From assembly GCA_945874835.1 (NCBI GenBank), contig CAMCJM010000004.1, forward strand, positions 1-39,826: DNA of 39,826 nucleotides, in the 5' to 3' direction. Positions 4,663 to 36,961 of this stretch are shown here, piece by piece. The notes under the pieces are model-generated. The model did no database searches and was not told the DNA's origin. It saw only the letters and a list, made by a program, of their open reading frames with translations. The position numbers and the translations under genes were made by a program. The first letter of the stretch is position 1. Each line of letters begins with the position of its first letter. Origin of the DNA: Pseudomonas synxantha. Lineage in GTDB: Bacteria > Pseudomonadota > Gammaproteobacteria > Pseudomonadales > Pseudomonadaceae.

Positions 4663-4674
4663 CAGACTGAGCCG

Positions 4675-15632: not shown

Positions 15633-15644
15633 CTGGGCAGGGGA

Positions 15645-16085: not shown

Positions 16086-16187
16086 GCCTGTTGACGTATC
16101 TGGGTGGGTCGTCGTAGTTCCCGGACATGCCCATTTCGGTCAAACAGTTTGACCTATTTTTATTTGCCCATGCTACCGGTGAGATCC

Positions 16188-17354: not shown

Positions 17355-17360
17355 ACTAGG

Positions 17361-17468
17361 TGTAGGAGCCAGCTTGCTGCGGTCCGGCGTCCTGGCGATC
17401 GGCTGCAAGCGAAAGCATCGCCAGTACGTCGGCCGCAGCAAGGACTAGGCGTCCCCTTGGCTCCTACA
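17361..17468. repeat. Imperfect palindromic intergenic repeat
   Basis: tgtaggagccagcttgctgcgg ... ccgcagcaagg...ttggctcctaca: complementary ends and inner CTGGCGAT/ATCGCCAG. Confidence 0.65.
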
Positions 17469-17501
17469 GATAGCAGATGGATAGGAAATACAGGAGGCTT
17501 T

Positions 17502-18104: not shown

Positions 18105-18205
18105 CAGCCGGCCGGGTGAAATGAGCGTTGATAGGCTCTGAGCTTTCTCACCGCTCAGTTTCCAGCTCCCTGTAAAAAGCACTTATCATTCAACGATCTA
18201 TCTAT

Positions 18206-20140
18206 TTGACTGGGTCGCGGATGCCATCTGCTGTTCAGCGCTATAAGCGACTCATCTCCGCTACCCTGGCGCGTTATTTCCCGCACACCACCGCCTACCT
18301 GCGCGCCGAGCGTGAAGCGGCTGCAGCGCTCAAGCAGCCTGTGCTCGCGGTTAAAAAAGCCGCCCGGCAGAAGCCGCCGGGTGCGGCTAAGGCGCGCCGC
18401 ACAAGCGCTAAAACCCCCACTGCAGGTATTTACGGGCCGGCGTTGCTGGCGGTGGATGCCGCGCGTTGTCAGGCCATGCGTGATCAGGTGGCGCGGGGCG
18501 TGACGGCTGGTGTACTCAGCGCCCCTTCGGATGAGCAGTGGGCGATGATTCTCAGTCCGCATCCGCTCACACGGATTTTTGCCGGGGCCGGTTCGGGCAA
18601 ATCCACCACGCTGGTGCTGCGCGTAGTGTTTATGTTTTGCCACCTGGGTATCAAGCCTGAACAGCTCACGGTGATTTCCTTCACCAACGCCTCCTGCGCC
18701 GAGTTGCGCGAACAACTGTGCACAGTCTTGCCGCTGTTTGCTTACCCATTCAATGCCAAACAAGCGCGCGACTGTGTGCGCACCTTTCATTCGGCCATGG
18801 CCACCTTGGCTAAGCCGCTACTGGGTAATCCTGGCTGGTTTGAGCAACTGGGCGATAAGCAAGCTGCCGCGCATGAGCTGGACAATCCGCTTGCCAGCGG
18901 GCGTTTGCGGCCGGCCCAGCAGCGCTGTCTAAAGCAGGCGTATCAGCAGTGCTATGCCGAACAAGTGGGCTTTCGTCAGGCGGTGCATACGCTGTTGCAA
19001 CTGCCCTTGCCCAGCGATGGCAAGCCTGTGCCCAAAGCCCCTCTGGAACCCTACAAATTGCCGGGTGAGTTTCACACTGCGCCCCTGTACGAGGTGTTTT
19101 ACAACCAGGCCGGTTTTGCCCAGAGCATCGGCATTGCGCCAGCGGCTTTACAGGCTCAGGCGTTGGCTGGGTCGGCGCAGGTGCGCGCATTTGCCCAGGC
19201 GCTGGCGTTGTTCTGGCCGTATTTCGAGCGTGATCTGCAGACTCAGGGGCTGCTCACCTTCAATGACGCGTTTGCCCAACTGACGGCGCGTTTGAATAAC
19301 CACGAAGAGGCGTTCCCCGTTGAGCGGCTGGCAACTTTTAGTCACCTGTTGATCGACGAGTTTCAAGACATCTCGCCGCAGATTGTCCTTTGGCTGCAGG
19401 CCGTCCAGCGTCGTCTGGCCGGGCAGGGTACAAGCGTTAGCCTGATGGCGATTGGTGATGACTGGCAATCGATCTACGGTTGGCGCGGCAGCTCGCCTGA
19501 GTTGTTTATCGATTTCGACCGGCACTTTCCGGGTAAAGGCCGGGCCAAGCGCAGCGCCGTGCTGAGCCTGGCCAATAACTACCGCTCGATTGAGCCGATT
19601 ATCCGCGACGGCGAAGCGTTGTTGGGCGGCGTGCAGCACAAACAAGCAAAAACCAGCCAGGCGATCAAAACCACCCAACCCGGCGAGCATGGCGTGCGCT
19701 TGATTCAGCGCTTCGACAGCAAGTCGCGTTTGCCGGAGTTGCTCGCGCACATCAACCAGCAATGCGCCTACGCGGCCGAGCACAACAGCCGTGAGCGCAA
19801 CGCGGTGCTGCTGCTCAGTCGGCGCAACGAGCCGTTGCAGGCCATCACCGCGCAGTTGGATAAAAAGCTGCCGGTCAAAGCCTGCACCATCCACCGCGCC
19901 AAGGGTTTGCAGGCTGAAGTGGCGATCATCCTCGACGACTGCCAACCGCCGGAACCACACCCGCTGCGCAACGCGCTGTACGCCTATTCGGGCTTCTTCG
20001 CCGGCAGCTACGACCAAGCCATGCAGGACGAAAGCCTGCGCCTGGCATACGTAGCGGTGACCCGTGGCGTCAGCCGGGTGTTTTGGTACTGCCAGAAAAC
20101 CCAAGGCGCAACGCGCATCCTGGCAGGGCGGGGCAAGTAG
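18206..20140 (+). CDS. UvrD-helicase domain-containing protein (SF1)
   Basis: 644 aa. GAGSGKSTTLVLRVV (Walker A), LLIDEFQDISPQIV (Walker B), AIGDDWQSIYGWRGSSPELF, CTIHRAKGLQAEVAIIL, LAYVAVTRGVSRVF. Confidence 0.93.
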   Translation: MTGSRMPSAVQRYKRLISATLARYFPHTTAYLRAEREAAAALKQPVLAVKKAARQKPPGAAKARRTSAKTPTAGIYGPALLAVDAARCQAMRDQVARGVTAGVLSAPSDEQWAMILSPHPLTRIFAGAGSGKSTTLVLRVVFMFCHLGIKPEQLTVISFTNASCAELREQLCTVLPLFAYPFNAKQARDCVRTFHSAMATLAKPLLGNPGWFEQLGDKQAAAHELDNPLASGRLRPAQQRCLKQAYQQCYAEQVGFRQAVHTLLQLPLPSDGKPVPKAPLEPYKLPGEFHTAPLYEVFYNQAGFAQSIGIAPAALQAQALAGSAQVRAFAQALALFWPYFERDLQTQGLLTFNDAFAQLTARLNNHEEAFPVERLATFSHLLIDEFQDISPQIVLWLQAVQRRLAGQGTSVSLMAIGDDWQSIYGWRGSSPELFIDFDRHFPGKGRAKRSAVLSLANNYRSIEPIIRDGEALLGGVQHKQAKTSQAIKTTQPGEHGVRLIQRFDSKSRLPELLAHINQQCAYAAEHNSRERNAVLLLSRRNEPLQAITAQLDKKLPVKACTIHRAKGLQAEVAIILDDCQPPEPHPLRNALYAYSGFFAGSYDQAMQDESLRLAYVAVTRGVSRVFWYCQKTQGATRILAGRGK

Positions 20141-20369
20141 AAGTTCCCTCTTGGTGTCAGTGCTGCGATGTCGTTGGCAGATTGGCTAAATCACTTCTGC
20201 TTATTCACCCAGACGGGATCGCTGCACTTGTCGGCCAAAGCCGCGCGCGGGCTGCAGGTTCGCTGCGAATGGCGGCAAATCCCACCATTTCGTCTCAGTA
20301 ACCCTCGGGCTAGAGCCTTAGAAATAAATTGACGCAACTTCTGCGAGTGGTTAGTTTTGCCCTCTTTAT

Positions 20370-20388
20370 GCAAATGCTAATTGTTCGC
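20370..20388 (+). promoter_or_regulatory. Candidate Fur box upstream of the siderophore operon
   Basis: gcaaatgctaattgttcgc matches the 19-bp Fur consensus GATAATGATAATCATTATC at 12/19 positions by hand; it lies just upstream of the first biosynthetic gene. Confidence 0.55.
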
Positions 20389-20401
20389 ATTGGCGTTAAA
20401 T

Positions 20402-21582
20402 ATGGAGGTTGGAGTGAATGCATTGACGCGTGTCGCTCGAAGGGGATCCCCGTGGGGCGATATCTATGCACCCACTTATCGGTTCTACTCCCCCGAAGGC
20501 GGGGTTGAGGCCAGCGGTTGTTTCAAGGCCATCGACACACCGGCAGGTGAGGAGGGTCAAGGCGTTGAACTGGCGGTAGAGGCGGCCTTTGCCGAGGCTA
20601 AGGTGGCGGGCTTGGAGCAGCCGATGGTGGTCGGGGTGATTCCCTTCGACAAGCAGCAGCCTTCCAGTCTGTTTGTTCCGCGCCATGTTTCGCGCCTGTT
20701 GCCAGGCGCACCGCCAACCAGTGTTTGCGGTTTATCCTGCGGCAAGGCCCGCCAATGCATCGAACAGCCGGATCAGGCTGGTTTCAAACAAGCCGTCGGT
20801 CGTGCCGTCGAAGTGTTGCGTGGCGGCAAGGTGAGCAAGGTGGTGTTGTCGCGGTTGTTGCAACTCGAGTTCGACAACGCACCATGCGCCGCAACGGTGT
20901 TCCAGGGGCTGCGCCAGCAGAACCCCGAGGCCTATCACTTTTCCATGGATTTGCCGGATGGCGGTGTGCTGATCGGCGCCAGTCCTGAGCTGTTGCTGCG
21001 TCAATACGGTCGGCATTTCACCTCCAATCCACTGGCCGGCTCGGCCAAGCGTCTGGCTGACCCTGCTGCCGATGCGTTGGTGGCGCAGGCGCTGCTGCAA
21101 TCGACCAAGGACCTGCACGAGCATCGTCTGGTGATCCAGGAGCTGGATCGCCAGCTGCGGCCGCTGTGCCGCAGTCTGAACGTGGCCGATGCGCCTTCGT
21201 TGTTGAAAACCGCCCGGCTCTGGCACCTTTCGACGCAGATCGCTGGCGAGCTGACTACTCCGGCGTCTGCGTTGAGTCTGGCTTGCAGCCTGCACCCTAC
21301 GCCGGCGCTGTGCGGCTTTCCGACGGCGGCGGCTAAGCGTCTGATCGCCGAACTGGAGCCGTTTGATCGCGGCGTATTTGGCGGCATCGTCGGCTGGAGT
21401 GATGCCGATGGCAACGGTGAATGGGCGGTGGTGATCCGCTGCGGCATCGTCGAGCACACGCGGGTCAGCCTGTTTGCCGGAGCGGGGCTGGTTACCGCGT
21501 CCTGCCCCGAATCGGAGTGGCTGGAGACCGGCAACAAGCTCGGCACCATGCTCTCGGCCTTCGGCCTGGAACGGGAGGCACT

Positions 21583-21586
<4 letters not shown>
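20402..21586 (+). CDS. entC: Isochorismate synthase (EntC/DhbC/AmoC-like)
   Basis: [79 protein letters not shown]. Start could be ATG 20402 or GTG 20414 (GGAGG at 20404-20408). Confidence 0.95.
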
Positions 21587-23223
<1,637 letters not shown>

Positions 23224-23235
23224 GGAAATCCCCTC

Positions 23236-24108
23236 ATGGCTATCCCGGCTCTGCAGCCCTACAGCATCCCCAGCGAATGGACGCCAAACAAGGTCAAGTG
23301 GACGCTTGATCCCGCTCGCGCGGTGTTGTTGATTCACGATATGCAGGCGTACTTCGCCGACTTCTGGGAGGCCGACAGCGCCTTCGTTCAGGCCTTGGTC
23401 GAGCGGCTGGCAGCAGTGCGTGCGCAGTGCAAGCTGCTGGGCATTCCAGTGGTCTACACCGCCCAGCCCGGCGTGCAAAGCGACGCCGAACGGGCCCTGC
23501 TTAACGACATGTGGGGGCCGGGCATTACCCAGCACCCCGAGCGCCAGGCGATCATCGCCGGGCTGGCGCCGGAGTCTGATGATACGGTGCTGGTGAAGTG
23601 GCGCTACAGCGCCTTTCAGCGCTCGCCACTTGAGCACATGCTCAAGGAACTGGGGCGCGAGCAACTGATCATCGGCGGCATCTACGCCCATATCGGCTGC
23701 CTGATGACCGCCTGCGACGCCTTTATGCGCGACATTCAGCCGTTCCTGCTGGCCGATGGCGTGGCCGACTTCAATCAGACCGACCACCAGATGGCGCTGA
23801 ATTATGTGGCGAGCCGTTGCGGCCAGGTGATTCGCTGCGCCGATGTGCTCAGCTTGGGCCGCGCGGGCACTCCGGCGTTGACCCGCGCCACCTTGCAGGC
23901 GCGCCTGCTGAGCCTGCTGGATGAGCTGGACGAACCCTTCGATCCCGACGAGAACCTGCTCGACTATGGCCTGGACTCGATTCAGGTGATGGCGCTGCTC
24001 AGTGAGTGGCGCGCGCAAGGTCTGGAACTGAGTTTTACCGACCTGGCCAAGACGCCGACGCTGAACGGCTGGTGGAGCCTGATCGAACAGAATGGCGGTG
24101 TCGCATGA
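23236..24108 (+). CDS. entB: Isochorismatase with C-terminal aryl carrier protein domain (EntB/DhbB/AmoB-like)
   Basis: MAIPALQPYSIPSEWTPNKVKWTLDPARAVLLIHDMQAYF, GGIYAHIGCLMTACDAFMRDIQPF, C-terminal ArCP LLDYGLDSIQVMALL. Confidence 0.97.
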   Translation: MAIPALQPYSIPSEWTPNKVKWTLDPARAVLLIHDMQAYFADFWEADSAFVQALVERLAAVRAQCKLLGIPVVYTAQPGVQSDAERALLNDMWGPGITQHPERQAIIAGLAPESDDTVLVKWRYSAFQRSPLEHMLKELGREQLIIGGIYAHIGCLMTACDAFMRDIQPFLLADGVADFNQTDHQMALNYVASRCGQVIRCADVLSLGRAGTPALTRATLQARLLSLLDELDEPFDPDENLLDYGLDSIQVMALLSEWRAQGLELSFTDLAKTPTLNGWWSLIEQNGGVA

Positions 24109-27100
24109 GGCGCTTGGGAGTCGCCCAGCAGGGCCTGTGGCACGGTTATGTGCTGAATGAAGACCGCGCCATGTTCAACACCGCCGAATGCATCGCCTTC
24201 GCCGGCAAGATCCAGGCGGCGCCGCTGATGGCCGCGCTGCGCCAGGCGGTCAGTGAGTGCGAAGCACTGTCCGGGCATTTCGTGGTCGATGGCGAGCAGG
24301 TGTGGTTCAACCCTGCCGAACTGCCGCTCAGTGTGGCGCAGGTGCAAATACCGATCGGGATCGATGCCCAGGCCTGGGTGCAGCAGTGGAGCATGGCCGA
24401 GATTCGCCAGCCGTTCGATCTGGAACGCGAGCTGCCATGCCGCTTCACTCTGCTGCAGGGCGAGCAGGTGGATTTTCTCTACGGCTGCATTCACCACATC
24501 GCTCTCGACGGCTATGGCAGCAATCTGCTCTATCAGCGCGTTGCCGAGCTGTATGGCGCGGCAACACGCGGTGAACCGGCCGCGCCTTGCGAGTTCGGCG
24601 ACTACGCCGCCGTGTTGAGTGAGGATGCCGAGCGCGAAAGCCAGTGCCGCACGGCTGCGGCTCGCGACTACTGGTGTGAACAGCTGGGTGCGCTGCCTGA
24701 GGCAGTCAGCTTTAGCGAGCGTGTCGCGCCGCTTTCGGCGACCTTCCTTCGTCATTCGGCAGCGTTTCCGCCGGCGCTGTGGCAGGCACTCAATCAACTG
24801 GCCGAGGCCAACAAGCTTGGCTGGCCAGACTTGCTGCTGGCCGCACTCTCAGCGCAGCTGCGCCAGGTCAGCGGCTGCGCCGCCCAGGTGCTCGGTCTGA
24901 TGGTGATGAACCGCATGGGTTCGGCCTCCTTCAACGTGCCCTGCATGCAGATGAACATTGCACCGCTGTGCCTCGATCTGAGCGATCAGGCCAATCTGCT
25001 CGAAGCCGCGCAGAGCATCGGCAAGCTGCGCCGCAGCAGCCGCAAGCATCAGCACTACCGCTACGAGTCACTGCGTCGCGACCTCGGTCGGGTTGGCGGC
25101 GAGCAGCGCCTGTTCGGGCCGCTGATCAATATCATGCCGTTCGACCGGCCGCAGACCTTCGGTGACTGTCCGGCGCGCACTCTGAGCCTGAGCGCCGGCC
25201 CGGTGGAAGACCTGACCCTGGAAGTGCACCTGGGGGCTAACGGTGTGCCGCTGCTGGATTACGACGCCAGCCCGGCCTGCTACAGCCAGGCGCAGGTACG
25301 CGCGCTGCAGGAGGAATTGTTCAGCCTGCTGGCCGCCTGGTTGCAGGCCCCGCAACAGCCGCGTGATCAGTTGCTGAGCGCCTGGAGCGCGCAGTACCGC
25401 GCGCAGCATATGCTTGGCGCACCGGCCGCCGAACAGGCCGCCATGGCCGAGGTCGGCAGCGTGCTGCTGGCCATTCGTGCCCAGGCCGAACGCCAACCGC
25501 AGCAGCTGGCGCTGTGCCAGGGCGAACGCCAATTGACCTACGCCGAGTTGCAGGCGCAGGCCGAAACCCTCGCCGCTGCCTTGAGCGAGCGTGGCGTGCA
25601 GCCGGGCGAGCGGGTTGGGGTGATGCTTAGTCGCAGCCCCGAGGCGATTGTCGTGCAGCTCGGCGTGCTGTTGGCCGGGGCGGTGTATGTGCCGCTCGAC
25701 CCGGAGCAGCCTGGCGAGCGTCAGCGGCTGATCTGCGCCACCGCGCAGCTGGCGCTGGTGGTCACCGAGGCGGCGTTCCGCCATCGCTTGGCCGATAGCT
25801 ACAGTGGTCCGATCGAACTGGCGGGCGTGCTGCACAGTACCAAGCGCCTCTGCGCACCACGTCAGGGCGAGGCTGCGGCCTACCTGATGTTCACCTCCGG
25901 CTCCACTGGTACGCCCAAAGGTTTGGAAATCAGCCACCGCGCGCTGGACCACTTTATCCAGGCGGCGTGTCTGCGTTATGGCGTGGATGCCAGCGATCGC
26001 ATGCTGCAATTCGCCCCGTTCAACTTCGACGCCAGTATCGAGGAGGTATTTGTCTGCCTCAGCGCTGGCGCGACGCTGGTGCTGCGTACCGATGCGCTGC
26101 TGGAGTCGATCAGCGCCTTTGTCGAGGGTATCGAGCAACTGGCAATCAGCGTGCTCGACCTGCCGACCGCCTTCTGGAACGAGTGGGTGGTGGCCCTGCG
26201 CGCCGGCCTGGTGCAGGTGCCGAGTGGGCTGAAGAGCGTGATCATCGGCGGCGAGGCGGTCTATCCCGAACAACTGACGGTCTGGCAGCGCATGGCCCCG
26301 CCAGCGATTCGCCTGATCAACACTTATGGACCCACCGAAACTACGGTAGTGGCGAGCACCTGCGACCTGCAAGGTGTTGCGCCGGCCAGCGATAGCCTAA
26401 CGAGTAACGCCAACCTGCCGATTGGTCAGGCGCTGGCTGGCGTCACGGCGCTGGTGCTGGGCCGTGGCGAGCGTCCAGCCGAGGAAGGCGAGTTGCTGTT
26501 GTGCGGTGCGCAGTTAGCCAACGGCTACCTGGGCAGTGATTCGCAAGCCTTTGCCAGCCTGCTGATCGGCGCGCAGCAGACGCCGGTCTATCGCACCGGT
26601 GATCGGGTGCGCGTGGAGGGGGGTCGGCTGGTTTACCTCGGCCGTCTGGACAACGAATTCAAGATCAGCGGCTATCGCATCCAGCCCGGCGAAGTCGAGT
26701 CGCGTCTGCTGGCTTTGAGCGGTGTCGATGAGGCCTGCGTGCAGGGCCTGGAACTGGGTGGCGGGCTGCGCCGGCTGGTGGCCTTTATCAGTGGTCCGCG
26801 CGATGACCTGCGCGGCATTCGCCAGGCGCTGAGCAAGCTGCTGCCGGCGGCCATGGTGCCGACCGACTACCGGCACTACCCGGCGTTGCCGCGCACTGCC
26901 ACCAACAAGCTCGACCGCAAGCGCCTGCACACCGAGTACCTGCAAGGCTCGCGCGAGCAGGCGCTGGACGATGAGACCCAGCAACGGGTGCGCAGCATCT
27001 GGCAGCAGATTCTCGGCGTCAGTGCGATTCAGGCCGCTGACAACTTCTTCGAGCTGGGCGGGCAGTCGCTGCAGACCATCCAGATCGTTAACCGTCTGGC

Positions 27101-27224
27101 GAGTGAGTTCGGCACGGCGGTGAAGGTTTCCGATGTCTTCGATCACCCACGTCTGGCGGACTTCTGTCACTTCCTCGACAGCCTCGTGCTGCAGAGCGAA
27201 GCGCAGGTGGAACAGATTTGGTAA
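24105..27224 (+). CDS. Non-ribosomal peptide synthetase, C-A-PCP (AmoF/EntF-like, predicted Lys-type or other basic residue)
   Basis: Starts MRRLGVAQQGLWHGYVLNEDRAMFN. C motif HHIALDGYG; A motifs YLMFTSGSTGTPKG, NTYGPTETTV, YRTGDRVRV; PCP DNFFELGGQSLQTIQ. ATGA overlap with the upstream gene. Confidence 0.95.
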   Translation: MRRLGVAQQGLWHGYVLNEDRAMFNTAECIAFAGKIQAAPLMAALRQAVSECEALSGHFVVDGEQVWFNPAELPLSVAQVQIPIGIDAQAWVQQWSMAEIRQPFDLERELPCRFTLLQGEQVDFLYGCIHHIALDGYGSNLLYQRVAELYGAATRGEPAAPCEFGDYAAVLSEDAERESQCRTAAARDYWCEQLGALPEAVSFSERVAPLSATFLRHSAAFPPALWQALNQLAEANKLGWPDLLLAALSAQLRQVSGCAAQVLGLMVMNRMGSASFNVPCMQMNIAPLCLDLSDQANLLEAAQSIGKLRRSSRKHQHYRYESLRRDLGRVGGEQRLFGPLINIMPFDRPQTFGDCPARTLSLSAGPVEDLTLEVHLGANGVPLLDYDASPACYSQAQVRALQEELFSLLAAWLQAPQQPRDQLLSAWSAQYRAQHMLGAPAAEQAAMAEVGSVLLAIRAQAERQPQQLALCQGERQLTYAELQAQAETLAAALSERGVQPGERVGVMLSRSPEAIVVQLGVLLAGAVYVPLDPEQPGERQRLICATAQLALVVTEAAFRHRLADSYSGPIELAGVLHSTKRLCAPRQGEAAAYLMFTSGSTGTPKGLEISHRALDHFIQAACLRYGVDASDRMLQFAPFNFDASIEEVFVCLSAGATLVLRTDALLESISAFVEGIEQLAISVLDLPTAFWNEWVVALRAGLVQVPSGLKSVIIGGEAVYPEQLTVWQRMAPPAIRLINTYGPTETTVVASTCDLQGVAPASDSLTSNANLPIGQALAGVTALVLGRGERPAEEGELLLCGAQLANGYLGSDSQAFASLLIGAQQTPVYRTGDRVRVEGGRLVYLGRLDNEFKISGYRIQPGEVESRLLALSGVDEACVQGLELGGGLRRLVAFISGPRDDLRGIRQALSKLLPAAMVPTDYRHYPALPRTATNKLDRKRLHTEYLQGSREQALDDETQQRVRSIWQQILGVSAIQAADNFFELGGQSLQTIQIVNRLASEFGTAVKVSDVFDHPRLADFCHFLDSLVLQSEAQVEQIW

Positions 27225-27235
27225 GGAGCAAACAG

Positions 27236-27994
27236 ATGAACAGGCAAATGGACTTCAGCGGTCAGACCATCTGGGTCACCGGTGCCGGCCAGGGCATTGG
27301 CCGCAGCGTGGCGGAGGGGTTTGCCCAGTTGGGCGGGCAGGTGATCGGCTTCGATTTGAGCTTCCCCGAGCAGGACTATGGCTTTACCCGCTATGTGCTG
27401 GATATCGGCGATGCCCAGGCGGTGCAGCAGGCCTGTCAGGAATTGCTGGGTGCCCATGGGGTGATCGATGTGCTGGCCAGTGTCGCCGGTGTGCTGCGTC
27501 TGGCGCCGATTGAGGAGCTGGCGCTGGAGGACTGGGACGCCTGCCTGCGGGTGAATGTCTCCGGGCCGTTCTATCTGTTGCGCCAGCTGATGCCGCGTTT
27601 CAAGGCCTGGCGGCGTGGCGCGGTAGTGGCGGTAAGCAGCAACGCGGCGCATGTGCCGCGCATGCAGATGGCCGCTTACAGCGCGTCCAAAGCGGCGCTG
27701 AGCAGCCTGATCCGCACCGCCGGTCTGGAGCTGGCGACCCATGGCGTGCGCTGCAACCTGGTGTCGCCGGGGTCCACGGACACGCCGATGCAACGCGGCA
27801 TGTGGCGCAGCAGTGACGCGCCGGCGCGCACGATCGATGGCTTTCCCGAGCAGTTCAAGCTGGGCATCCCGCTGCAGAAGATCGCAACCCCGGAAGAGGT
27901 TGCCAGCGTCGTGCTGTTCCTGGCATCGAGCTTGGCCAGCCACATCACCCTGCAAGACATCGTGGTTGACGGCGGCGCAAGCCTGACCGATTAA
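27236..27994 (+). CDS. entA: 2,3-dihydro-2,3-dihydroxybenzoate dehydrogenase (EntA/DhbA/AmoA-like)
   Basis: MNRQMDFSGQTIWVTGAGQGIGRSVAEGFAQLGGQVIGFDLSF, LASVAGVLRLAPIEELALEDWDACLRVNVSGPFYLLRQ, AVSSNAAHVPRMQMAAYSASKAAL, CNLVSPGSTDTPMQR; aaggag SD. Confidence 0.96.
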   Translation: MNRQMDFSGQTIWVTGAGQGIGRSVAEGFAQLGGQVIGFDLSFPEQDYGFTRYVLDIGDAQAVQQACQELLGAHGVIDVLASVAGVLRLAPIEELALEDWDACLRVNVSGPFYLLRQLMPRFKAWRRGAVVAVSSNAAHVPRMQMAAYSASKAALSSLIRTAGLELATHGVRCNLVSPGSTDTPMQRGMWRSSDAPARTIDGFPEQFKLGIPLQKIATPEEVASVVLFLASSLASHITLQDIVVDGGASLTD

Positions 27995-28004
27995 GAGGTA
28001 GTTA

Positions 28005-31000
28005 ATGGACACTAATATCATCGGCCTGCTGAGCCAGCTGGCCCGTCAGGGCGTGCAGCTGAGTCTGAATGCTCAGGGCCAGCTGGTTTCCCAGTCGAGC
28101 AAGGACGCCATCACCCCGGAGCTGGGCCAGCAGATTCGCGCGAACCGCGACGCCATCGTCACCTGCCTGGCCGCCGCCAGCGCCTTTGCCGCGCCGATCC
28201 AGGCGCAGCATGCCGAAAGTGGCCCGCTGTCGTCATCGCAGAGCGGCTTGTGGTTTATCGAGCAGTACGAGGAAAGTTCGCACCTGTACAACATGCCGGT
28301 GTATTTCCGCCTGACCGGCGAGCTCGATGTGCCGGCGCTGGCGTTTGCCTTCGATGCGCTGGCGCAGCGCCACGCCAGCCTGCGCACGCGCTTTGTGCGT
28401 AATGCCCAGGGTCGTGGCGAACAGCAGATATTGCTGCACCGACAGCTGCAATTGGACGTTGAGGATGTGTCCGCCCTCGAGCCACAAGCCCGCGAGGCGC
28501 AGGTGGCGCAACGGGTGCGCGATGAGATCAACCAGCCCTTCGACCTCACCACTGGCGAGCTGACCCGCGTGCACCTGCTGCGCCTCGGTGCGAGTGAGCA
28601 CGTGCTGCTGATCACCCAGCACCACATCATCTCCGACGGCTGGTCGGTGAAGAACATGTTTGCCGACCTCAAAACCGCGTTTCTGGCTTTCCAGAATCGC
28701 CAGCCATTGAACTGGCAAGCGCCGGCGCTGAACTACATCGACTACGCCAGCTGGTTCAATTCGCCGCTGTTCCGTGACTACCACGAGCAGTTCAAACCCT
28801 TCTGGGTCGAGCGCCTGCGCGGCATCGCCGATGTGCACAGCCTGCCGCTGGACAAACCGCGCCCGGCGCATCAGGCCAGTGGTGGCGAGCTGGTGTTTTC
28901 GACTATCGACAACGCGTTGTGGGCGCGCTTTAAACAGCTGTGCCAGCAGCACAACACGTCGCCCTTTATCGGCTTGCATGCGCTGTTTGCGCTACTGCTG
29001 GCGCGCCACAGTGGTGAGCGCGACATCGTTATCGGCACGCCGCTGGCCTACCGTGAACGTCCGGATATCGAAGGCTTGGTGGGCTTTTTCGTCAACACCC
29101 TGGTGCTGCGCACCCAGCTGCCCGAGCGGCAGAGTTTTAGCGATTACTTGCAGGCTTGCCGCAAGGATGATCTGGAGGCCTTCGACCACCAGCTTTATCG
29201 CTTCGAGGCGCTTAGCGAGGCACTCGGTATGGATCGCCACACGGCGATCAACCCGATCTTCCAGATCATGCTGGTGTACCAGGCGCGGGTCGATTTCAAC
29301 GACCTGATTCCCGGTTGCCAGGCGGTAGAGGAAACCTCGCCAGTGCTGCCGGCCAAGACCGATATCTCGGTCAAAGTCACCGAATTGATGGGCTCGGTGC
29401 GGGTTGACTGGCTTTACGCCACGGCGCTGTTCGAGCACGCCACGGTCGAACGTTATGCCGAACGCCTGTTATTGCTGCTGGAAGCTGTGGTCGAACAACC
29501 CGAGATGGATATCTGGGCGCTGCCGCTGCTCGATCAGCCACTGGTGCAGCAAACCGCCGCGCGTCTGGCCGCGTTGCCTCGCGAATATCCCAATCGGCGC
29601 ACGGCTCTGGGCCTGTTCGAGGACATGGCGCGGCTGTATTCGCAGCGTCCGGCGCTGGGTATTGGTGAGCAGGCGATAAGCTATGCCGAGTTGGATGCGC
29701 GGGCCAACCGCCTGGCGCATTGGCTGCTCAGCCAGGGCTGCGGACCGGGCGCGCTGCTGGGCGTACTGGCGCGCCGCGAAAATGCCTTCGCGGTGGCGGT
29801 TATGGCCATCTGGAAAATCAACGCCGCCTACGTGCCGCTGGATCCGGCCTACCCGCGTGAACGCTTGCAGCACATCCTTTGCGATGCCGGCATTGAGCTG
29901 ATCGTCGCTCAGGGCGAACCACCCTTCGCGCTGGACGCCGTTGTGCGCTGGGTCGATCTGCTGGATGCCAACCTGCAGACGCAACTGGACGGTATGTCGC
30001 CGACCACCCCGGCGCTCGGCCACGACCCGCAGCAGCTCGCCCAGGTGATCTACACCTCCGGCTCCAGCGGCTTGCCCAAGGGCGTGATGGTCGAGCAGGG
30101 CAGCCTGGTCAACCTGCTGCAGGACCACGCCCAGCTCCTGCAATTGGGCTGCCAGGCACGCATGTTCAACTGCATGTCGCTGTCCTTCGACGCCGGTAAT
30201 ATGTGTGCGCTGCTGCCGCTGACCCACGGTGCGAGCCTGGTCTGGGGCGCCCCGGACGAGGGGCTGCTGGAGCAGCTTGAGCGCAGTGCCAGCAGTCATA
30301 TGATCTGCCCCACGGCCTTGCTCGCGACTCTGCCCGAGCGTGAGTTGCCGGCTTTGCAGGCCATCGGCTTCGGCGGTGAGGCGTGTCCGGCCGGGTTGAT
30401 CGAGCGCTGGGCCGGACGCGTGCGCCTGATCAATATGTACGGGCCGACCGAGGCCACGGTGACTGCGCTGTGCAAGCATTTGCTACCAGGCAGCAGTCTG
30501 ACCATCGGTACGCCAATAGACGGTATGCAGGCGCTGATTCTTGATGAGCTGGGCAACCTCTGCCCGGTCGGTGTGCTGGGCGAACTGTGCTTGGCCGGCC
30601 TCGGTCTGGCGCGCGGCTATTTGAACCAGCCGCAGCGTACGGCAGCGGTGTTCCGCGAACACTGCGTGGCTGGCGTCACGCTGCGCCTTTACCACAGCGG
30701 CGACCGCGCACGGCTGTTGGGCAATGGTGAGTATGAATACCTGGGCCGCCTCGATGAGCAGATCAAACTGCGCGGTTACCGCATCGAACCTGGGGAGATC
30801 GAAACCCAGTTGAGCCTCAGCTGCCCGGCGCTGCAACAGGTCAAGGTGCTGGTGCTGCGCGATGGCCAGCGCCAGGCCCTGGTTGCCTATGCTGTGCTCA
30901 AGCCCGGTGAGGCGCAGCCTTCTGCCGATACGGTGCTGCATGACGTGGCGCAGCGCCTGCCGGAATATATGGTGCCGAGCAGCCTGGTGCTGCTCGAACA

Positions 31001-32567
31001 GATGCCGCTGACGCCGAATGGCAAGCTCGACCTGCGCCAGCTGCCGAAGATCGACCTGGCGGCTGGCGGCGAACATACGCCGCCGGCCAACCCGCTCGAG
31101 GCCGAGATCCTTGCTATTTGGCAGGCCGTGCTGAATCATCCGCTCGGCGTGCAGAGCGACTTCTTCCAGTTGGGCGGCGATTCGATCCTGAGTATCCAGC
31201 TGACCACGCGCCTGCGCGATGCCGGCTATCCCTGCTCGGTCAAGGAAGTGTTCGAGGCCAAGACCGTGCGCCGCCTGTGCCGGGTGCTGGGCAGCAAGCG
31301 CGAGGCGGTCGCGGTGCAGGCCGAGCAGGGCGTGCTGACCGGAGAATTCCCGCTGCAGCCGATTCAGCGCTGGTTCTTCGAGCAGCCCCTGGCCACCCCG
31401 CAGCACTGGAACCAGGGGGTATTGCTGCGCCTGCCTGCGGGCGTTGCGGTGACGCAGTTGCGCGGTTATCTGCAGCAGCTGTTGCAGCATCACGATGCCC
31501 TGCGCCTGACGGTGACGCCGAGCAGTCAGCGTTACCTGGAGAATCTGCCGCTGGCGGCCCCTGCAACCCTCGATTACGCCGAACTGGGCGAAGCCGGTTT
31601 GCAAGCGGCGTTGACCGAGCTGCAAAGCCACTTCGAGCCGATGCTGGGGCGCAGCCTGAGCTGGGCGCTGGTGGAAAACCTGCCGCAGGGCCGCGCAATG
31701 TTTATCGCCTGCCACCACCTGGTGGTCGATGCGGTGTCCTGGCGCATCCTCGCCGATGACTTGGCGCGGTTGCACCGTGGCGAAGCGCTGCCGGCCAAGA
31801 CCAGCAGCTACCGGCAATGGGGTCAGGGCCTGACCGCCTATGTGCTGCAAGCCGGTGCGCAGCTGCGCTTCTGGCGCGAGCGCATGGCTGCGATGGATTA
31901 CCGTGTTCCGGCTGACTGGATCAGCGTCGAGCCGACCCAGGCGCATCTACTTGAGCTGGAATCGGCGCTGACCCAGCAACTCAGTCAGCACGCCACTCAG
32001 GTGTTTGCCTGTGAGATGCGCAGTCTGTTGCTTGCTGCCTTGACCCGTACCCTGCGCGAGATGGGCCTCGGTCAGCGCCAGTGGATTCTGCTGGAAGGCC
32101 ATGGCCGTGAGGTGATTGACCCGAGCCTGGATGTCAGCCGCACCCTGGGCTGGTTCACCAGCATGTACCCGCTGGTGCTGGATGATCAGGCGGACTGGGC
32201 GCAGCTGATCGCGCAATGCGCCGAGCGGCTGCGCCAGGTGCCGGATAACGGCGTCGGTTATATGCCCTTGCGTGCCAGCTTGCAGGAACCCAACCCTTTG
32301 CCGCTGCCGCCCGTGGCGTTGAATTACCTGGGCAGTGCGCGCAGTGGCCAGGGCGACTGGCAGCCGTTGTCCATCGCACCGGGCCGGCCAAGTGCGGCGG
32401 ACAACCGCTCAGCGGAGCTGATCAGCCTGCACGGTGGGATTTTTGATGGTCGCCTGACCCTGCGGCAGATCGGCTGCCTGCGCGGCGATCTCAGCGAGCA
32501 ATTGCGGCAGCGTCTGCGTCAGCACCTGACTGAGCTGGCCAGGCTGGCGATGGAGGTACAGCCATGA
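28005..32567 (+). CDS. Non-ribosomal peptide synthetase, TubC-like docking-C-A-PCP-E (AmoG-like)
   Basis: 1520 aa. N-terminal MDTNIIGLLSQLARQGVQLSLNAQGQLVSQ...ITPELGQQIRANRDAIVTCLA (TubC_N-like); C motif HHIISDGWS; A motifs YTSGSSGLPKGVM, NMYGPTEATV; PCP DFFQLGGDSILSIQ; E motifs HHLVVDAVSWRIL, EGHGRE, TLGWFTSMYPL. Confidence 0.95.
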   Translation: MDTNIIGLLSQLARQGVQLSLNAQGQLVSQSSKDAITPELGQQIRANRDAIVTCLAAASAFAAPIQAQHAESGPLSSSQSGLWFIEQYEESSHLYNMPVYFRLTGELDVPALAFAFDALAQRHASLRTRFVRNAQGRGEQQILLHRQLQLDVEDVSALEPQAREAQVAQRVRDEINQPFDLTTGELTRVHLLRLGASEHVLLITQHHIISDGWSVKNMFADLKTAFLAFQNRQPLNWQAPALNYIDYASWFNSPLFRDYHEQFKPFWVERLRGIADVHSLPLDKPRPAHQASGGELVFSTIDNALWARFKQLCQQHNTSPFIGLHALFALLLARHSGERDIVIGTPLAYRERPDIEGLVGFFVNTLVLRTQLPERQSFSDYLQACRKDDLEAFDHQLYRFEALSEALGMDRHTAINPIFQIMLVYQARVDFNDLIPGCQAVEETSPVLPAKTDISVKVTELMGSVRVDWLYATALFEHATVERYAERLLLLLEAVVEQPEMDIWALPLLDQPLVQQTAARLAALPREYPNRRTALGLFEDMARLYSQRPALGIGEQAISYAELDARANRLAHWLLSQGCGPGALLGVLARRENAFAVAVMAIWKINAAYVPLDPAYPRERLQHILCDAGIELIVAQGEPPFALDAVVRWVDLLDANLQTQLDGMSPTTPALGHDPQQLAQVIYTSGSSGLPKGVMVEQGSLVNLLQDHAQLLQLGCQARMFNCMSLSFDAGNMCALLPLTHGASLVWGAPDEGLLEQLERSASSHMICPTALLATLPERELPALQAIGFGGEACPAGLIERWAGRVRLINMYGPTEATVTALCKHLLPGSSLTIGTPIDGMQALILDELGNLCPVGVLGELCLAGLGLARGYLNQPQRTAAVFREHCVAGVTLRLYHSGDRARLLGNGEYEYLGRLDEQIKLRGYRIEPGEIETQLSLSCPALQQVKVLVLRDGQRQALVAYAVLKPGEAQPSADTVLHDVAQRLPEYMVPSSLVLLEQMPLTPNGKLDLRQLPKIDLAAGGEHTPPANPLEAEILAIWQAVLNHPLGVQSDFFQLGGDSILSIQLTTRLRDAGYPCSVKEVFEAKTVRRLCRVLGSKREAVAVQAEQGVLTGEFPLQPIQRWFFEQPLATPQHWNQGVLLRLPAGVAVTQLRGYLQQLLQHHDALRLTVTPSSQRYLENLPLAAPATLDYAELGEAGLQAALTELQSHFEPMLGRSLSWALVENLPQGRAMFIACHHLVVDAVSWRILADDLARLHRGEALPAKTSSYRQWGQGLTAYVLQAGAQLRFWRERMAAMDYRVPADWISVEPTQAHLLELESALTQQLSQHATQVFACEMRSLLLAALTRTLREMGLGQRQWILLEGHGREVIDPSLDVSRTLGWFTSMYPLVLDDQADWAQLIAQCAERLRQVPDNGVGYMPLRASLQEPNPLPLPPVALNYLGSARSGQGDWQPLSIAPGRPSAADNRSAELISLHGGIFDGRLTLRQIGCLRGDLSEQLRQRLRQHLTELARLAMEVQP

Positions 32568-34042
32568 CAGTCATGCAACAGAACCTCGGCGTGCCGCTGC
32601 TGGGCACGCACCTGGCGCAGGTGTTCGCCGAGCATGCCGGTGCGCCAGCGTTGGACTGGGCTAGCGACAGTTACAGCTATGCGCGGCTGGCCGCGCGCAC
32701 GGCGGCGATTGCTGCGCAACTGACAGCACGGGGCGTGCCGCCGGGCGCGCGGGTCGGCTTGTACCTGCAACGCTCGGCCGACTTGTTGGCGGCGACCCTG
32801 GCCTGTTTGCATAACGGCCTGTGCTTTGTGCCGCTGGATCCGGAATTCCCCTTCGAACGCTTGCAGGGCATTGCCGAGGATGCCGATCTGGCGCTGGTAC
32901 TGCAGGATGCTCATGGCCAGGGCAGCTTCGCTATGCCGAGTCTGCAACTGCAAGACGGTGAGGGAGGCGAGCTGAGCTGGCCGGCGCTGGATGAGCAACT
33001 GCCGGCTTACATGATGTTTACCTCTGGCTCCACCGGGCGGCCAAAAGGCGTGGTGATCAGCCGCCGCGCCCTGACCAATTTCCTCAGCGCTGCCAGCCGC
33101 CGGCTGCAGCTGGGCAGCGCCACCCGCTGGCTGTTTATCACCACCCCGGCCTTCGATATCTCCCTGCTGGAAATGCTCGGTCCGCTGTGGGCCGGTGGTG
33201 CGCTGGAAGTGGTCGGCAACCCTGCACATAAGGACCCGGACGCGCTGCTCAGACTATTGGCCGAGCATCCCGAAATCAATACTCTGCAGGCCACTCCAGC
33301 GTTCTGGCGCATGCTGCTCAAGGCTGGCTGGTCGGGCCGCTCTGGGCTGACTGCACTGTGTGGTGGCGAGGCACTGGATGCGCCCCTGGCCGAGCGTCTG
33401 GCGCCATTGGTTGACCAATTGTGGAATTGCTACGGCCCCACCGAGGCCACGGTCTGGTCGCTGATGGCGCAGGTGCAATTGCCGCTCGGCGAGCAGGGTG
33501 TGTTGCTGCGTCAGTCCCTCAATGGCTATCGCCATTGGGTGCTGGATGAGGTCGGTGATGCCTTGGCCATTGGTGGCGAGGGCGAGTTGTGCATCGAAGG
33601 GGCGTCGTTGGCCAGCGGCTACTGGGCGCGTGATGACCTGACTGAACAAAGCTTTATTACTTGGCAAGGCCGCCGACTGTACCGCACCGGTGACCGCGTG
33701 CAGCGGGTCGGCGAAGACGCCTACCGCTATCTGGGGCGGCGTGATGAGCAGATCAAGCTACGTGGCTTTCGCATCGAACTGGGCGAAATAGAAGTCTGTC
33801 TGCGGCGTATCGACGGCGTGCAGGACGCGGCGGTCAGGCTGCATGGCAGCGGCGATGAAGCTTGCCTGGTGGCCTACGTGGAACTGCGTGAGGGCGCTGG
33901 TCTGGGTCGTATGACCATTCGCCGCGCGCTGCAGCAACGGCTGCCGCACTACATGATTCCGGCGCGCATTCTTCTACTCGACAGCCTGCCGAAAACGGCC
34001 AGTGGCAAGCTGGATAGAAAGCGCCTGCCGGCTCCGGAATAG
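32564..34042 (+). CDS. Stand-alone NRPS adenylation domain protein (AmoH-like, predicted glycine)
   Basis: 492 aa. YMMFTSGSTGRPKGVVISRRAL, FDISLLEMLGPLWAGG, NTLQATPAFWRMLLKAGW, NCYGPTEATVWS, YRTGDRV; ends at GKLDRKRLPAPE* with no PCP. Confidence 0.95.
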   Translation: MTVMQQNLGVPLLGTHLAQVFAEHAGAPALDWASDSYSYARLAARTAAIAAQLTARGVPPGARVGLYLQRSADLLAATLACLHNGLCFVPLDPEFPFERLQGIAEDADLALVLQDAHGQGSFAMPSLQLQDGEGGELSWPALDEQLPAYMMFTSGSTGRPKGVVISRRALTNFLSAASRRLQLGSATRWLFITTPAFDISLLEMLGPLWAGGALEVVGNPAHKDPDALLRLLAEHPEINTLQATPAFWRMLLKAGWSGRSGLTALCGGEALDAPLAERLAPLVDQLWNCYGPTEATVWSLMAQVQLPLGEQGVLLRQSLNGYRHWVLDEVGDALAIGGEGELCIEGASLASGYWARDDLTEQSFITWQGRRLYRTGDRVQRVGEDAYRYLGRRDEQIKLRGFRIELGEIEVCLRRIDGVQDAAVRLHGSGDEACLVAYVELREGAGLGRMTIRRALQQRLPHYMIPARILLLDSLPKTASGKLDRKRLPAPE

Positions 34043-34135: not shown

Positions 34136-35077
34136 TCAGTTCTTGATCGGCTTAGCGTCAGCCTTCCCGATCAGTTGTTCGATATCGGCAATCACTTGCA
34201 AGGCGGCTTGCGGGCCGCCGAGCGAGGTCCATAGCGAACCATCGACTGCGCCAAAGCGTTTGCCCTGGATTGCCGAGAGTTGTTTGAACGCCGGGGTTTG
34301 TTCGGCCTGCTGAAGGGCTTCCACCGCCTCGCCGCTGGTGCTCAGGGTTCCGATCACCAGCCAGTCGGCATCCAGCAGTTGCAGTGATTCCAGGCTCAGG
34401 GCCATGGAGTGGGTATGGCCGGGGTCCTGCTGGTAGCTTGGGCGTTTCATACCTACGTCGCTGATCACGCTGCTGGCAAACGAGTCCTTGAACATGTAGG
34501 AGGGGCCTTTGGGGTTCCAGCGCACGATGCTGAAGGTCTCGCCTTGGTGAGTCTTTAAGCGTTCACGGGCTTCGGCGGCGCGGGCGTTGTAGCGTGCCAG
34601 CAGCGCTTCGGCGGCTTCGCTGCGATCAAGCGCGTTGGCGGTGCGCTGCAGGCTTTCCTGCCAGGGCTTGGTCCAGGCAAAGGTGATTACCGTTGGGGCG
34701 ATTTCATTGAGGATCGCCAGTTGCTCGGGTTTTACCGGGCCGGTAAGGATCAGGTCGGGCTCCAGTTCCAGCAGGGTTTCCAGGTTGGGGTTGTCGATAT
34801 CGCCGACCACCTTGATCCCGGCTACTACTTGGCTGTCGAGATAACGTGGCGGCGCGGCCTGGCCACGACCGTTAATCGTGCCGACCGGAGTGATGCCTAG
34901 GGCCAGCGCCGCATCCAGATCCAGCTCACTCAAGGTGATCACCCGCTGCGGTGCATTTGGCACAGTAACCGGGTTGCCGAAAGCATCTTCGATCTGGCGG
35001 GTGTCGGCCACGGCGGCCGCGCTTAACAGCTGGCTGGCAAGCAGCAGTGGCAGGCTCCAGCGCAATAGAGTAGTCAT
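34136..35077 (-). CDS. Iron-siderophore ABC transporter substrate-binding protein (FepB/FhuD-like)
   Basis: MTTLLRWSLPLLLASQLLSAAAVADTRQIEDAFGNPVTVPNAPQRVITLSELDLDAALALGITPVG, LETLLELEPDLILTG, IAPTVITFAW. Confidence 0.95.
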   Translation of the reverse strand: MTTLLRWSLPLLLASQLLSAAAVADTRQIEDAFGNPVTVPNAPQRVITLSELDLDAALALGITPVGTINGRGQAAPPRYLDSQVVAGIKVVGDIDNPNLETLLELEPDLILTGPVKPEQLAILNEIAPTVITFAWTKPWQESLQRTANALDRSEAAEALLARYNARAAEARERLKTHQGETFSIVRWNPKGPSYMFKDSFASSVISDVGMKRPSYQQDPGHTHSMALSLESLQLLDADWLVIGTLSTSGEAVEALQQAEQTPAFKQLSAIQGKRFGAVDGSLWTSLGGPQAALQVIADIEQLIGKADAKPIKN

Positions 35078-35081
35078 CGGA

Positions 35082-35918
35082 TTAGTCCTGTGCAGAGTGG
35101 ATGGGGTTGCGCCGGCGCGGCACCACCACCGGGGCGCCGTCATCGGGCGCCGCGAGGATGTCCACGTCGGTGTCATAGAGTTGGTCGATTAAGGTCTTGT
35201 TGATCACCTCACGGGCCGGGCCCATAGCGGCGATGCGGCCGTTGTCGAGGGCGATGATTTCATCGCAGTAACGCGCGGCCACGCCCAGGTCGTGAATCAC
35301 GATCAGTACGGTGCGACCCTCACCGACGATATTCAGCACCGCCTCCATTACCTCGGCCTGGTGGCCGATATCCAGGGCGCTGGTAGGCTCATCGAGCAGC
35401 ACCAGGTCGGTGTTCTGCGCCAGGATCATGCCCAGCCAGGCGCGTTGGGCCTGGCCACCGGAAAGCGAAGAAGCCACCTGCTGCCAGATGTCCTGCAGTT
35501 GCATGGCATCGCGGGCGCGGGCGACCTGAAGGGCGTCTTCCGCGCTCCACTGGTTGAACCAGCCCTGGTGCGGATGGCGGCCGTATTGCACCAGTTGCTC
35601 GACGCGAATGCCTTCGGCCATCACAGGGCGCTGCGGGAGAAAGGCCAGCTCGCGGGCCAGTGCCTTCATCCTGTAGCGCTGCAGCGGCGTGCCATTGAGT
35701 TCGACCTTGCCGTCCTGCAATGGCAGTTGCCGCGCCAGCAGCTTGAGCAGGGTGGATTTGCCGCTGCCGTTTGGCCCGACAATGCCGATCAGCTTGCCCT
35801 TGGGCAGCTCGAACGAGACGTCCTGCAACACGCGCTTGGCCTGGTAGGCAAAGCTCAGGTTGTGCGCACGCAACTGCGCAGGTCGGGGCTGGGGTATTGG
35901 CGTGGACAACAGCGTCAT
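35082..35918 (-). CDS. fepC: Iron-siderophore ABC transporter ATP-binding protein (FepC-like)
   Basis: Starts MTLLSTPIPQPRP. GIVGPNGSGKSTLLKLLARQL, SLSGGQAQRAWLGMILAQNTDLVLLDEPTSALDIGHQ. Confidence 0.96.
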   Translation of the reverse strand: MTLLSTPIPQPRPAQLRAHNLSFAYQAKRVLQDVSFELPKGKLIGIVGPNGSGKSTLLKLLARQLPLQDGKVELNGTPLQRYRMKALARELAFLPQRPVMAEGIRVEQLVQYGRHPHQGWFNQWSAEDALQVARARDAMQLQDIWQQVASSLSGGQAQRAWLGMILAQNTDLVLLDEPTSALDIGHQAEVMEAVLNIVGEGRTVLIVIHDLGVAARYCDEIIALDNGRIAAMGPAREVINKTLIDQLYDTDVDILAAPDDGAPVVVPRRRNPIHSAQD

Positions 35919-36961
35919 CAATCGGAGCCTTTGCGGTCTTTGAACAACAGGATCAGTAGCAGAACGCCGCCAAGCAGGCGGGTCATGATCCCGGTGGGAA
36001 TTTCTTCGGGTTGCGCCAGCAGACGTGCCAGGGTGTCGCTGCCCACCAGCAGCACCGCGCCACATAACGCTGCCAGCCAAATCGGCGCGAGGTGATCGCG
36101 GGCCAGCCAGGAGGCGATGATCGGCGCGGCCATGGCGATAAATATCACCGGGCCGCCGATGGCGGTGCCCAGTGCCGCCACCAGAATCGCCACGCCAAGC
36201 ACTGCCAGTTGCAGCGCCGCGACCTTGATGCCGAGGTTCTGCGCCGTCGCTTCACCGAAGCGCAGCAGTGCCAGCGGACGGTTAAGCCAAGCCAGCAGCG
36301 GGCAGAGCGCCAGCAGAATCAACGCAATCGGTATGACCGTCTGGTAGCTGGCTCCGGCGAAGTGACCCATGGTCCATAGGTAGATGCTGCCCAGGTGCAC
36401 CAATGGTTGCGTGGCCATCATAAAATCACCGATGGCGCCGAGCAGCTCTGACAGGGCGATGCCAATCACGATAAACAGATAACCCTGTTCGCCCGGTCGG
36501 CGGCACAGCACGAACAGCGCCACTGCAGCCAGCGCCGCACCCAGTGGCGAGGCCCACCAGAGCCAGCTGCCAACAGTCAGATAAAGCGCGAAGCCGATCA
36601 CCGCCAGTGATGCGCCTTCGTTGACTCCGACCATATCCGGGGTGGCTAGGCGGTTGCGTACCAGCGTCTGGATCAGGCAGCCGGCCATGCCCATGGCGAG
36701 TCCCGCGACCACTACGGCGGCGACTCGTGGCATGCGGATCTTGAACACCATGATGTCGTTCATCTTACTGCCCTGGCCGCTCAGCGTGGCCAGTATATCG
36801 AGGACACCCATGCGCCCTGAGCCGCGGCTGATGGCCATGATTACCAGCGCCAACAGCACCGCCAGTACCAGCAGGCTGAGCAGCCAGGTGCGCCGATGCA
36901 GCAGCAGGTTCAGGTGGCCCAGCCGCAGATGCCAGAGTCCGGAGGGTTGATGGCTGGGCAT
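35918..36961 (-). CDS. fepG: Iron-siderophore ABC transporter permease (FepG-like, FecCD family)
   Basis: 347 aa. FKIRMPRVAAVVVAGLAMGMAGCLIQTLVRNRLATPDMVGVNEGASLAVIG, GGPVIFIAMAAPIIASWLARDH, EIPTGIMTRLLGGVLLLILL. Confidence 0.95.
   Translation of the reverse strand: MPSHQPSGLWHLRLGHLNLLLHRRTWLLSLLVLAVLLALVIMAISRGSGRMGVLDILATLSGQGSKMNDIMVFKIRMPRVAAVVVAGLAMGMAGCLIQTLVRNRLATPDMVGVNEGASLAVIGFALYLTVGSWLWWASPLGAALAAVALFVLCRRPGEQGYLFIVIGIALSELLGAIGDFMMATQPLVHLGSIYLWTMGHFAGASYQTVIPIALILLALCPLLAWLNRPLALLRFGEATAQNLGIKVAALQLAVLGVAILVAALGTAIGGPVIFIAMAAPIIASWLARDHLAPIWLAALCGAVLLVGSDTLARLLAQPEEIPTGIMTRLLGGVLLLILLFKDRKGSD

What the first reader, a model, noticed from the sequence alone, without database searches (positions are those of the whole stretch)
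20370..34042. Amonabactin-type (amoC-E-B-F-A-G-H order) catecholate siderophore operon in a Pseudomonas-like genome
Seven consecutive + strand genes encode isochorismate synthase, DHB-AMP ligase, isochorismatase-ArCP, C-A-PCP NRPS, DHB dehydrogenase, C-A-PCP-E NRPS and a lone A domain. From my knowledge of the family this is the order of the Aeromonas amonabactin locus (DHB, Lys, optional Gly, aromatic residue), and two A-domain codes fit that logic. The neighbouring cysB/usp/DAHP synthase block looks like a pseudomonad chromosome, so this would be an amonabactin-like siderophore outside its classical host. The product may differ.
Basis: partly seen in the sequence, partly recalled or inferred. 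Interest (0 to 1): 0.85.

Follow-up and report, generated by a model that had tools for sequence, protein, structure and literature searches.

The report
Amonabactin siderophore genes in Pseudomonas
A small group of Pseudomonas carries the gene set for amonabactin, an iron-scavenging molecule best known from Aeromonas; it is a known kind of system, but one assembly enzyme lacks the two domains expected to add the optional glycine although the glycine-activating gene is kept.

Summary
Window 20.4-34.0 kb holds an intact seven-gene operon in amoC-E-B-F-A-G-H order. It sits on the contig of a Pseudomonas MAG and converges on a catecholate-type uptake operon that the contig end cuts. The amonabactin reading is well supported: all three NRPS specificity codes equal those of Aeromonas, and a six-gene tree puts the locus inside the amonabactin family, sister to Stutzerimonas and then Aeromonas.

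"Outside its classical host" is only partly new. Stutzerimonas is already reported to carry the cluster and to make amonabactins; for Pseudomonas in the narrow sense it had not been reported by 2023. In this genus it is rare (2 of 400 sampled genomes besides the window). It forms part of a ~22.9 kb presence/absence block and is the only NRPS found in every carrier checked.

Aeromonas-type AmoG ends in C-A-T-E-C-T (~2,080 aa). Here, in all Pseudomonas and Stutzerimonas examined and in Aeromonas diversa, it stops after E (~1,520 aa). The lone glycine A domain AmoH has therefore lost its apparent partner, yet it is under strong purifying selection. Either glycine is loaded on another carrier, or only glycine-free forms are made. 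Chemistry was not testable here.

The parts
20329..20388 (+). amoC promoter: TTGACG (20329) -17 bp- TAGTTT (20352), overlapped downstream by a Fur-box-like GCAAATGCTAATTGTTCGC (20370-20388)
   Evidence: Promoter and Fur-like element aligned and conserved in 15 Pseudomonas/Stutzerimonas loci; a near-identical element lies between the MFS and fhuF genes of G553. The raw consensus score alone is not above chance.
20402..21586 (+). amoC, isochorismate synthase (start codon uncertain, 20381 or 20402)
   Evidence: TIGR00543 above cut-off; ortholog in all complete amo loci
21580..23223 (+). amoE, 2,3-DHB-AMP ligase
   Evidence: TIGR02275 and NF008192 above cut-offs
23236..24108 (+). amoB, isochorismatase with aryl carrier domain
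   Evidence: PF00857 + PF00550; carrier serine motif YGLDSI
24105..27224 (+). amoF, NRPS C-A-T, lysine-type code DAEDIGTVV
   Evidence: Pfam; code identical to Aeromonas AmoF
27236..27994 (+). amoA, 2,3-dihydro-2,3-DHB dehydrogenase
   Evidence: TIGR04316 above cut-off
28005..32567 (+). amoG, NRPS TubC_N-C-A-T-E (1520 aa), aromatic-residue code DAMIGGMVT; lacks the terminal C-T of Aeromonas AmoG
32564..34042 (+). amoH, stand-alone A domain, glycine-type code DILQLGCVW
   Evidence: dN/dS about 0.09 in the Pseudomonas clade
34136..35080 (-). periplasmic ferri-siderophore binding protein
   Evidence: PF01497; ortholog follows amoH in Aeromonas, Stutzerimonas and most Photobacterium loci
35082..35918 (-). 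siderophore ABC transporter ATPase
   Evidence: PF00005, FecE/FhuC-like
35918..36961 (-). FecCD-type permease 2
   Evidence: PF01032
36964..38001 (-). FecCD-type permease 1
   Evidence: PF01032
38060..39826 (-). TonB-dependent catecholate receptor, N-terminus cut off by the contig end
   Evidence: Frame open to the last base; CirA/FepA-like; complete 671-aa frame in G553, followed there by an MFS gene

Best explanation
An iron-regulated amonabactin-type biosynthesis and uptake locus. AmoC, AmoB and AmoA make 2,3-dihydroxybenzoate (DHB) from chorismate. AmoE activates DHB and loads it on the AmoB carrier domain. AmoF (C-A-T) loads lysine and joins DHB to it, and is used twice. AmoG (C-A-T-E) adds phenylalanine or tryptophan and inverts it to the D form. 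Release is by an unknown step, because no thioesterase lies in the locus. The convergent TonB receptor, binding protein and FecCD/ATPase transporter bring the ferric complex back. AmoH activates glycine for the optional DHB-Gly branch. Because the AmoG C-T pair is absent here, I infer that AmoH charges an existing carrier (most likely AmoF T) so that DHB-Gly still forms, or else that glycine-free forms dominate. Gene content, codes, phylogeny and domain loss are shown; the order of chemical steps follows published Aeromonas work; the glycine route is inference. The confidence below is for the amonabactin-type assignment, not for the glycine route.
For: Enzyme families and intact motifs. All three A-domain codes identical to Aeromonas amo loci. 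Seven-gene order shared with Aeromonas, Stutzerimonas, Pectobacterium and Photobacterium. The tree nests the window with Pseudomonas records, then Stutzerimonas, G496, Aeromonas. P. stutzeri VS-10 makes amonabactins (PMC5345036). amoH is constrained about as tightly as amoC-G (dN/dS about 0.09). No spare C domain or NRPS-type carrier in the complete relative G553. Conserved promoter with Fur-like element.
Against: No product data for this genome. The domain make-up of AmoG differs from the experimentally studied one (PMC11861348 gives 2089 residues and three condensation-type domains). Code identity does not prove substrate. The locus is cut at the receptor. The genome is a MAG at 87% completeness, so absences in it are provisional.
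Confidence: 0.88

Rival explanations
1. The same assembly line, but without the C-T pair glycine can no longer be added: only the two glycine-free amonabactins (P693, T732) are made and AmoH does something else or little.
For: The C-T pair, the natural partner for a lone A domain, is absent in all Pseudomonas/Stutzerimonas loci; no replacement C domain in G000, G553, G131 or G202; Stutzerimonas TS44 has an internally deleted amoH.
Against: amoH is kept in every other complete locus with an essentially unchanged glycine code and strong purifying selection. A metabolomics paper assigns P750 and a mass-789 amonabactin by mass to cultures of Pseudomonas sp. SST3 and P. zhaodongensis SST2 (PMC10609385); the S. 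zhaodongensis record seen here (L025) has the short AmoG.
Confidence: 0.4
2. A different catecholate siderophore, myxochelin-like or enterobactin-like, assembled by a superficially similar operon.
For: The best NCBIfam match of AmoF is MxcG (924 bits); an enterobactin-like cluster is reported in Pseudomonas (PMC10165715).
Against: The MxcG score is far under its cut-off of 2300, and AmoF has neither a reductase nor a thioesterase domain; codes, order and tree match Aeromonas amo loci.
Confidence: 0.03
3. A decayed or silent acquired cluster.
For: Patchy distribution and a higher GC content than the left flank.
Against: All frames open, catalytic motifs intact, dN/dS 0.05-0.10 for all seven genes in the Pseudomonas clade, conserved promoter, sole NRPS siderophore system of the carriers.
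Confidence: 0.04

Closest known systems
Amonabactin locus of Aeromonas (amoCEBFAGH; MIBiG BGC0001502 as cited in PMC12704434)
   Same: Gene order, enzyme families, all three A-domain codes, lone A domain AmoH, binding-protein gene convergent downstream
   Different: AmoG lacks the C-terminal C-T pair (1520 against about 2080 aa); AmoE/F/G/H about 57-68% identical
Amonabactin cluster of Stutzerimonas (reported in PMC10165715; product of P. stutzeri VS-10 in PMC5345036)
   Same: Same order and same short AmoG without C-T; sister clade in the tree
   Different: About 66-82% identical per biosynthetic protein; different genus
Amo locus of Aeromonas diversa (L030)
   Same: Also a short AmoG without C-T, with amoH kept
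   Different: Groups with the other Aeromonas loci, so its loss of C-T appears independent
Amo locus of G496 (unnamed species of another Pseudomonadaceae genus)
   Same: Same operon; sister to the Pseudomonas+Stutzerimonas clade
   Different: Keeps the C-T pair (AmoG 2081 aa)

Membership tests
Amonabactin biosynthesis (amoCEBFAGH) | Seven genes in the order C-E-B-F-A-G-H, one strand | tested here: met
Amonabactin biosynthesis (amoCEBFAGH) | A-domain codes for Lys (AmoF), Phe/Trp (AmoG), Gly (AmoH) | tested here: met
   Codes identical to 15-16 Aeromonas loci
Amonabactin biosynthesis (amoCEBFAGH) | Phylogenetic grouping with Aeromonas amo proteins | tested here: met
   Pseudomonas+Stutzerimonas+G496 (97% SH-aLRT) sister to Aeromonas, with Pectobacterium/Photobacterium loci as outgroup
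Amonabactin biosynthesis (amoCEBFAGH) | AmoG with three condensation-type domains, C-A-T-E-C-T | tested here: not met
   C-A-T-E only; Aeromonas form and PMC11861348
Amonabactin biosynthesis (amoCEBFAGH) | Iron (Fur) control of the operon | tested here: inconclusive
   Fur-like element conserved in 15 promoters, but its consensus score is not above shuffled sequence
Amonabactin biosynthesis (amoCEBFAGH) | Production of P693/T732/P750/T789 | not testable with these tools
   Needs LC-MS; amonabactins reported for Stutzerimonas relatives (PMC5345036; masses in PMC10609385)
Myxochelin synthetase MxcG | NCBIfam NF038078 above cut-off, terminal reductase domain | tested here: not met
   924 bits against 2300; no reductase domain
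Enterobactin synthetase EntF | C-A-T-TE with NF007605 above cut-off | tested here: not met
   355 and 299 bits against 2400; no TE domain

The most novel reading that the evidence does not exclude
In the Pseudomonas/Stutzerimonas lineage, and independently in A. diversa, the amonabactin line lost the C-T pair that should serve the glycine A domain, yet AmoH still adds glycine by charging a carrier of another module in trans. 'Optional' glycine would then be competition of two A domains for one carrier, and the Aeromonas C-T pair would be dispensable.
Probability: 0.4. Interest if true: 0.6.

Novelty: new variant of a known kind. Interest (0 to 1): 0.4.

Why it matters
The amonabactin line is cited as one of the most irregular NRPS pathways (iterative, alternative, optional; PMC8949500). 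How glycine is added optionally is a poorly resolved step. Two apparently independent natural losses of the C-T pair, with amoH retained, and one strain with a deleted amoH, give ready-made genetic comparisons to settle it. The locus also shows a small group of Pseudomonas with no pyoverdine NRPS relying on an Aeromonas-type catecholate as its only NRPS siderophore.

Tried and rejected
Myxochelin and enterobactin families: scores far under cut-offs and wrong terminal domains. A separate C domain or NRPS-type carrier elsewhere that might replace the C-T pair: no further C domain in G000, G553, G131 or G202, and no NRPS-type carrier in G000 or the complete genome G553; a few carrier matches on large frames in draft G202 were not examined. 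A dedicated thioesterase: only weak partial matches on unrelated contigs. NIS siderophore synthetase as a second system: none. Plasmid-borne transfer of close relatives: best plasmid matches are under 60% identical. tRNA-Tyr at 4579 as an integration site: ARAGORN reports it but Rfam does not, and it lies 16 kb from the operon. The Aeromonas biosynthesis paper (10.1007/s00253-016-7773-4) is not held, so its mutant results are known to me only through PMC8949500 and memory.

Full report
**What is there.** The seven + strand genes exist as described. Junctions overlap as ATGA at amoC/amoE, amoB/amoF and amoG/amoH, as in one transcription unit. Motifs needed for catalysis are present in every carrier, C, A and E domain; the last AmoG domain is an epimerisation domain. 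Immediately downstream and convergent lie a periplasmic binding protein, ATPase, two FecCD permeases and a TonB-dependent catecholate receptor. The receptor is cut by the end of the window, which is the end of contig C4.

**Whose genome.** The window's assembly is a 3.3 Mb, 277-contig genome estimated 87% complete. Its genus includes G202, which I identify as Pseudomonas sp. sp1636 because its contig carrying amoF has the same length, 102,802 bases, as NZ_JARRAB010000019.1. The nearest named loci are Pseudomonas MAGs and HGW-Gammaproteobacteria-13, 94-95% identical in AmoF.

**Is it amonabactin-type?** Sixty loci were fetched with AmoF; fifty-two carry an orthologous operon or part of one: Pseudomonas, Stutzerimonas, Aeromonas, Pectobacterium/Samsonia, Photobacterium, Salinivibrio, Motilimonas. 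The remaining eight are distant NRPS matches in Microcystis, Planktothrix and one Ignavibacteriales MAG. Nine-residue A-domain codes were extracted against the GrsA segment (typed from my own knowledge): AmoF DAEDIGTVV, AmoG DAMIGGMVT, AmoH DILQLGCVW, the same in the window and in all Aeromonas loci. Reading these as Lys, Phe/Trp and Gly rests on the published Aeromonas assignments (PMC8949500) and general knowledge of glycine codes. Position 278 of AmoG depends on the alignment. A six-protein tree puts the window in a Pseudomonas clade, sister to Stutzerimonas, then G496, then Aeromonas, all with high SH-aLRT support (quick method, no bootstrap).

**The difference.** Aeromonas, Pectobacterium, Photobacterium, Salinivibrio and Motilimonas AmoG is about 2,080-2,200 aa with a C-T pair after E; published A. 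hydrophila AmoG is 2,089 aa with three condensation-type domains (PMC11861348). In the window, all other Pseudomonas and all Stutzerimonas loci examined, and A. diversa, AmoG ends after E. G496, a Pseudomonadaceae of another genus, keeps C-T. On the tree this needs two changes; since the C-T stretches of Aeromonas, Pectobacterium, Photobacterium and G496 are homologous at 45-53% identity, two losses are the simplest reading. The tree alone does not separate loss from gain.

**AmoH without a partner.** A lone A domain needs a carrier. The C-T pair next to amoH looks like the rest of its module. No other C domain exists in G000 or in three related carriers; the complete genome G553 has only short acyl-carrier-type matches besides the amo ones. 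Yet amoH shows median dN/dS 0.09 in Pseudomonas and 0.16 in Stutzerimonas, no looser than its neighbours. In Aeromonas the C-T stretch itself is looser (0.25) than the genes of the operon as wholes (0.10-0.17). In Stutzerimonas TS44 amoH has a large internal deletion. I infer that AmoH still works, on another carrier; AmoF T with the AmoF C domain joining DHB to glycine is the most economical route. That step is inference.

**Masses.** Two DHB, two Lys and Phe plus water give 693.301 (neutral); glycine adds 57.021; Trp in place of Phe gives 732.312 and 789.333 (own arithmetic). PMC10609385 reports 693.3010, 750.3217 and 789.3335 as [M+H]+ for Pseudomonas sp. SST3 and P. zhaodongensis SST2 cultures. 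These equal the neutral masses, and its 'unidentified' 694.3082 equals [M+H]+ of P693. If right, glycine forms occur in a short-AmoG lineage, but the AmoG of strains SST2 and SST3 was not checked here.

**Regulation and complete locus.** A TTGACG-17-TA(G/A)NTT-like promoter followed by GCAAATG(A/C)TAAT is conserved upstream of amoC in 15 loci. The complete relative G553 shows what the window lacks: a 671-aa receptor frame, an MFS transporter gene after it, a divergent fhuF-like gene and a Fur-like element between these two.

**How it sits in the genome.** In G553, G131 and L016-L018 the locus follows the same helicase gene as in the window. In G280 and G176, which lack amo, that helicase is followed directly by the genes found beyond fhuF in G553, with flanks at about 80-94% DNA identity; about 22.9 kb is absent in G280. 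In G202 the locus is elsewhere. Only 2 of 400 evenly drawn congeners besides the window, plus G553, carry it. This fits a laterally gained block, though loss elsewhere is not excluded. GC is 63-68% in the biosynthetic operon against 56-62% left of it. Carriers G553, G131 and G202 have exactly three C/E domains each, all amo, so no pyoverdine NRPS, and no IucA/IucC.

**Prior knowledge.** The Stutzerimonas BGC and absence of reports in Pseudomonas are stated in PMC10165715 (2023); amonabactins of P. stutzeri VS-10 in PMC5345036. I found no paper describing the short AmoG in the held library, which lacks most subscription journals.

**Verdict.** Correct family call; host range claim only partly new; a real, previously unflagged architectural variant that makes the glycine step testable.

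Noticed in passing
L021 (Stutzerimonas stutzeri TS44) 18536-18880: amoH is reduced to its two ends by a large internal deletion: a natural amoH mutant in an otherwise intact operon.
   Followed up: partly
L030 (Aeromonas diversa) 13890-18467: AmoG lacks the C-T pair although the other Aeromonas loci with a complete amoG have it, an apparently independent loss.
   Followed up: yes
L098 8457-10620 (G553): An MFS transporter gene after the receptor and a divergent fhuF-like gene with a Fur-like element between them; probably exporter and ferric reductase of the system, beyond the contig end in the window.
   Followed up: partly
window 4579-4668: ARAGORN calls a tRNA-Tyr overlapping the end of an RND pump gene; Rfam finds nothing there, so probably a false positive.
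   Followed up: yes
L060 20359-22473 (Pectobacterium carotovorum): AmoH has about 200 extra N-terminal residues with no Pfam match that look to me like a piece of a condensation domain.
   Followed up: no
L105 18237-20000 and L106 (G604 region 18237-25053): A 6.8 kb stretch, partly of much lower GC (about 55% against 67-71%), separates amoH from the uptake operon.
   Followed up: no
L107 (G473): A distant AmoF relative (42% identity) in another Pseudomonadaceae genus, possibly another DHB-peptide cluster.
   Followed up: no
PMC10609385: The m/z values printed for amonabactins equal neutral masses, and the unassigned ion 694.3082 fits [M+H]+ of amonabactin P693.
   Followed up: partly
NZ_AP026896.1 in the plasmid collection: A 4.9 Mb Aeromonas caviae record listed among plasmids is evidently a chromosome.
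   Followed up: no
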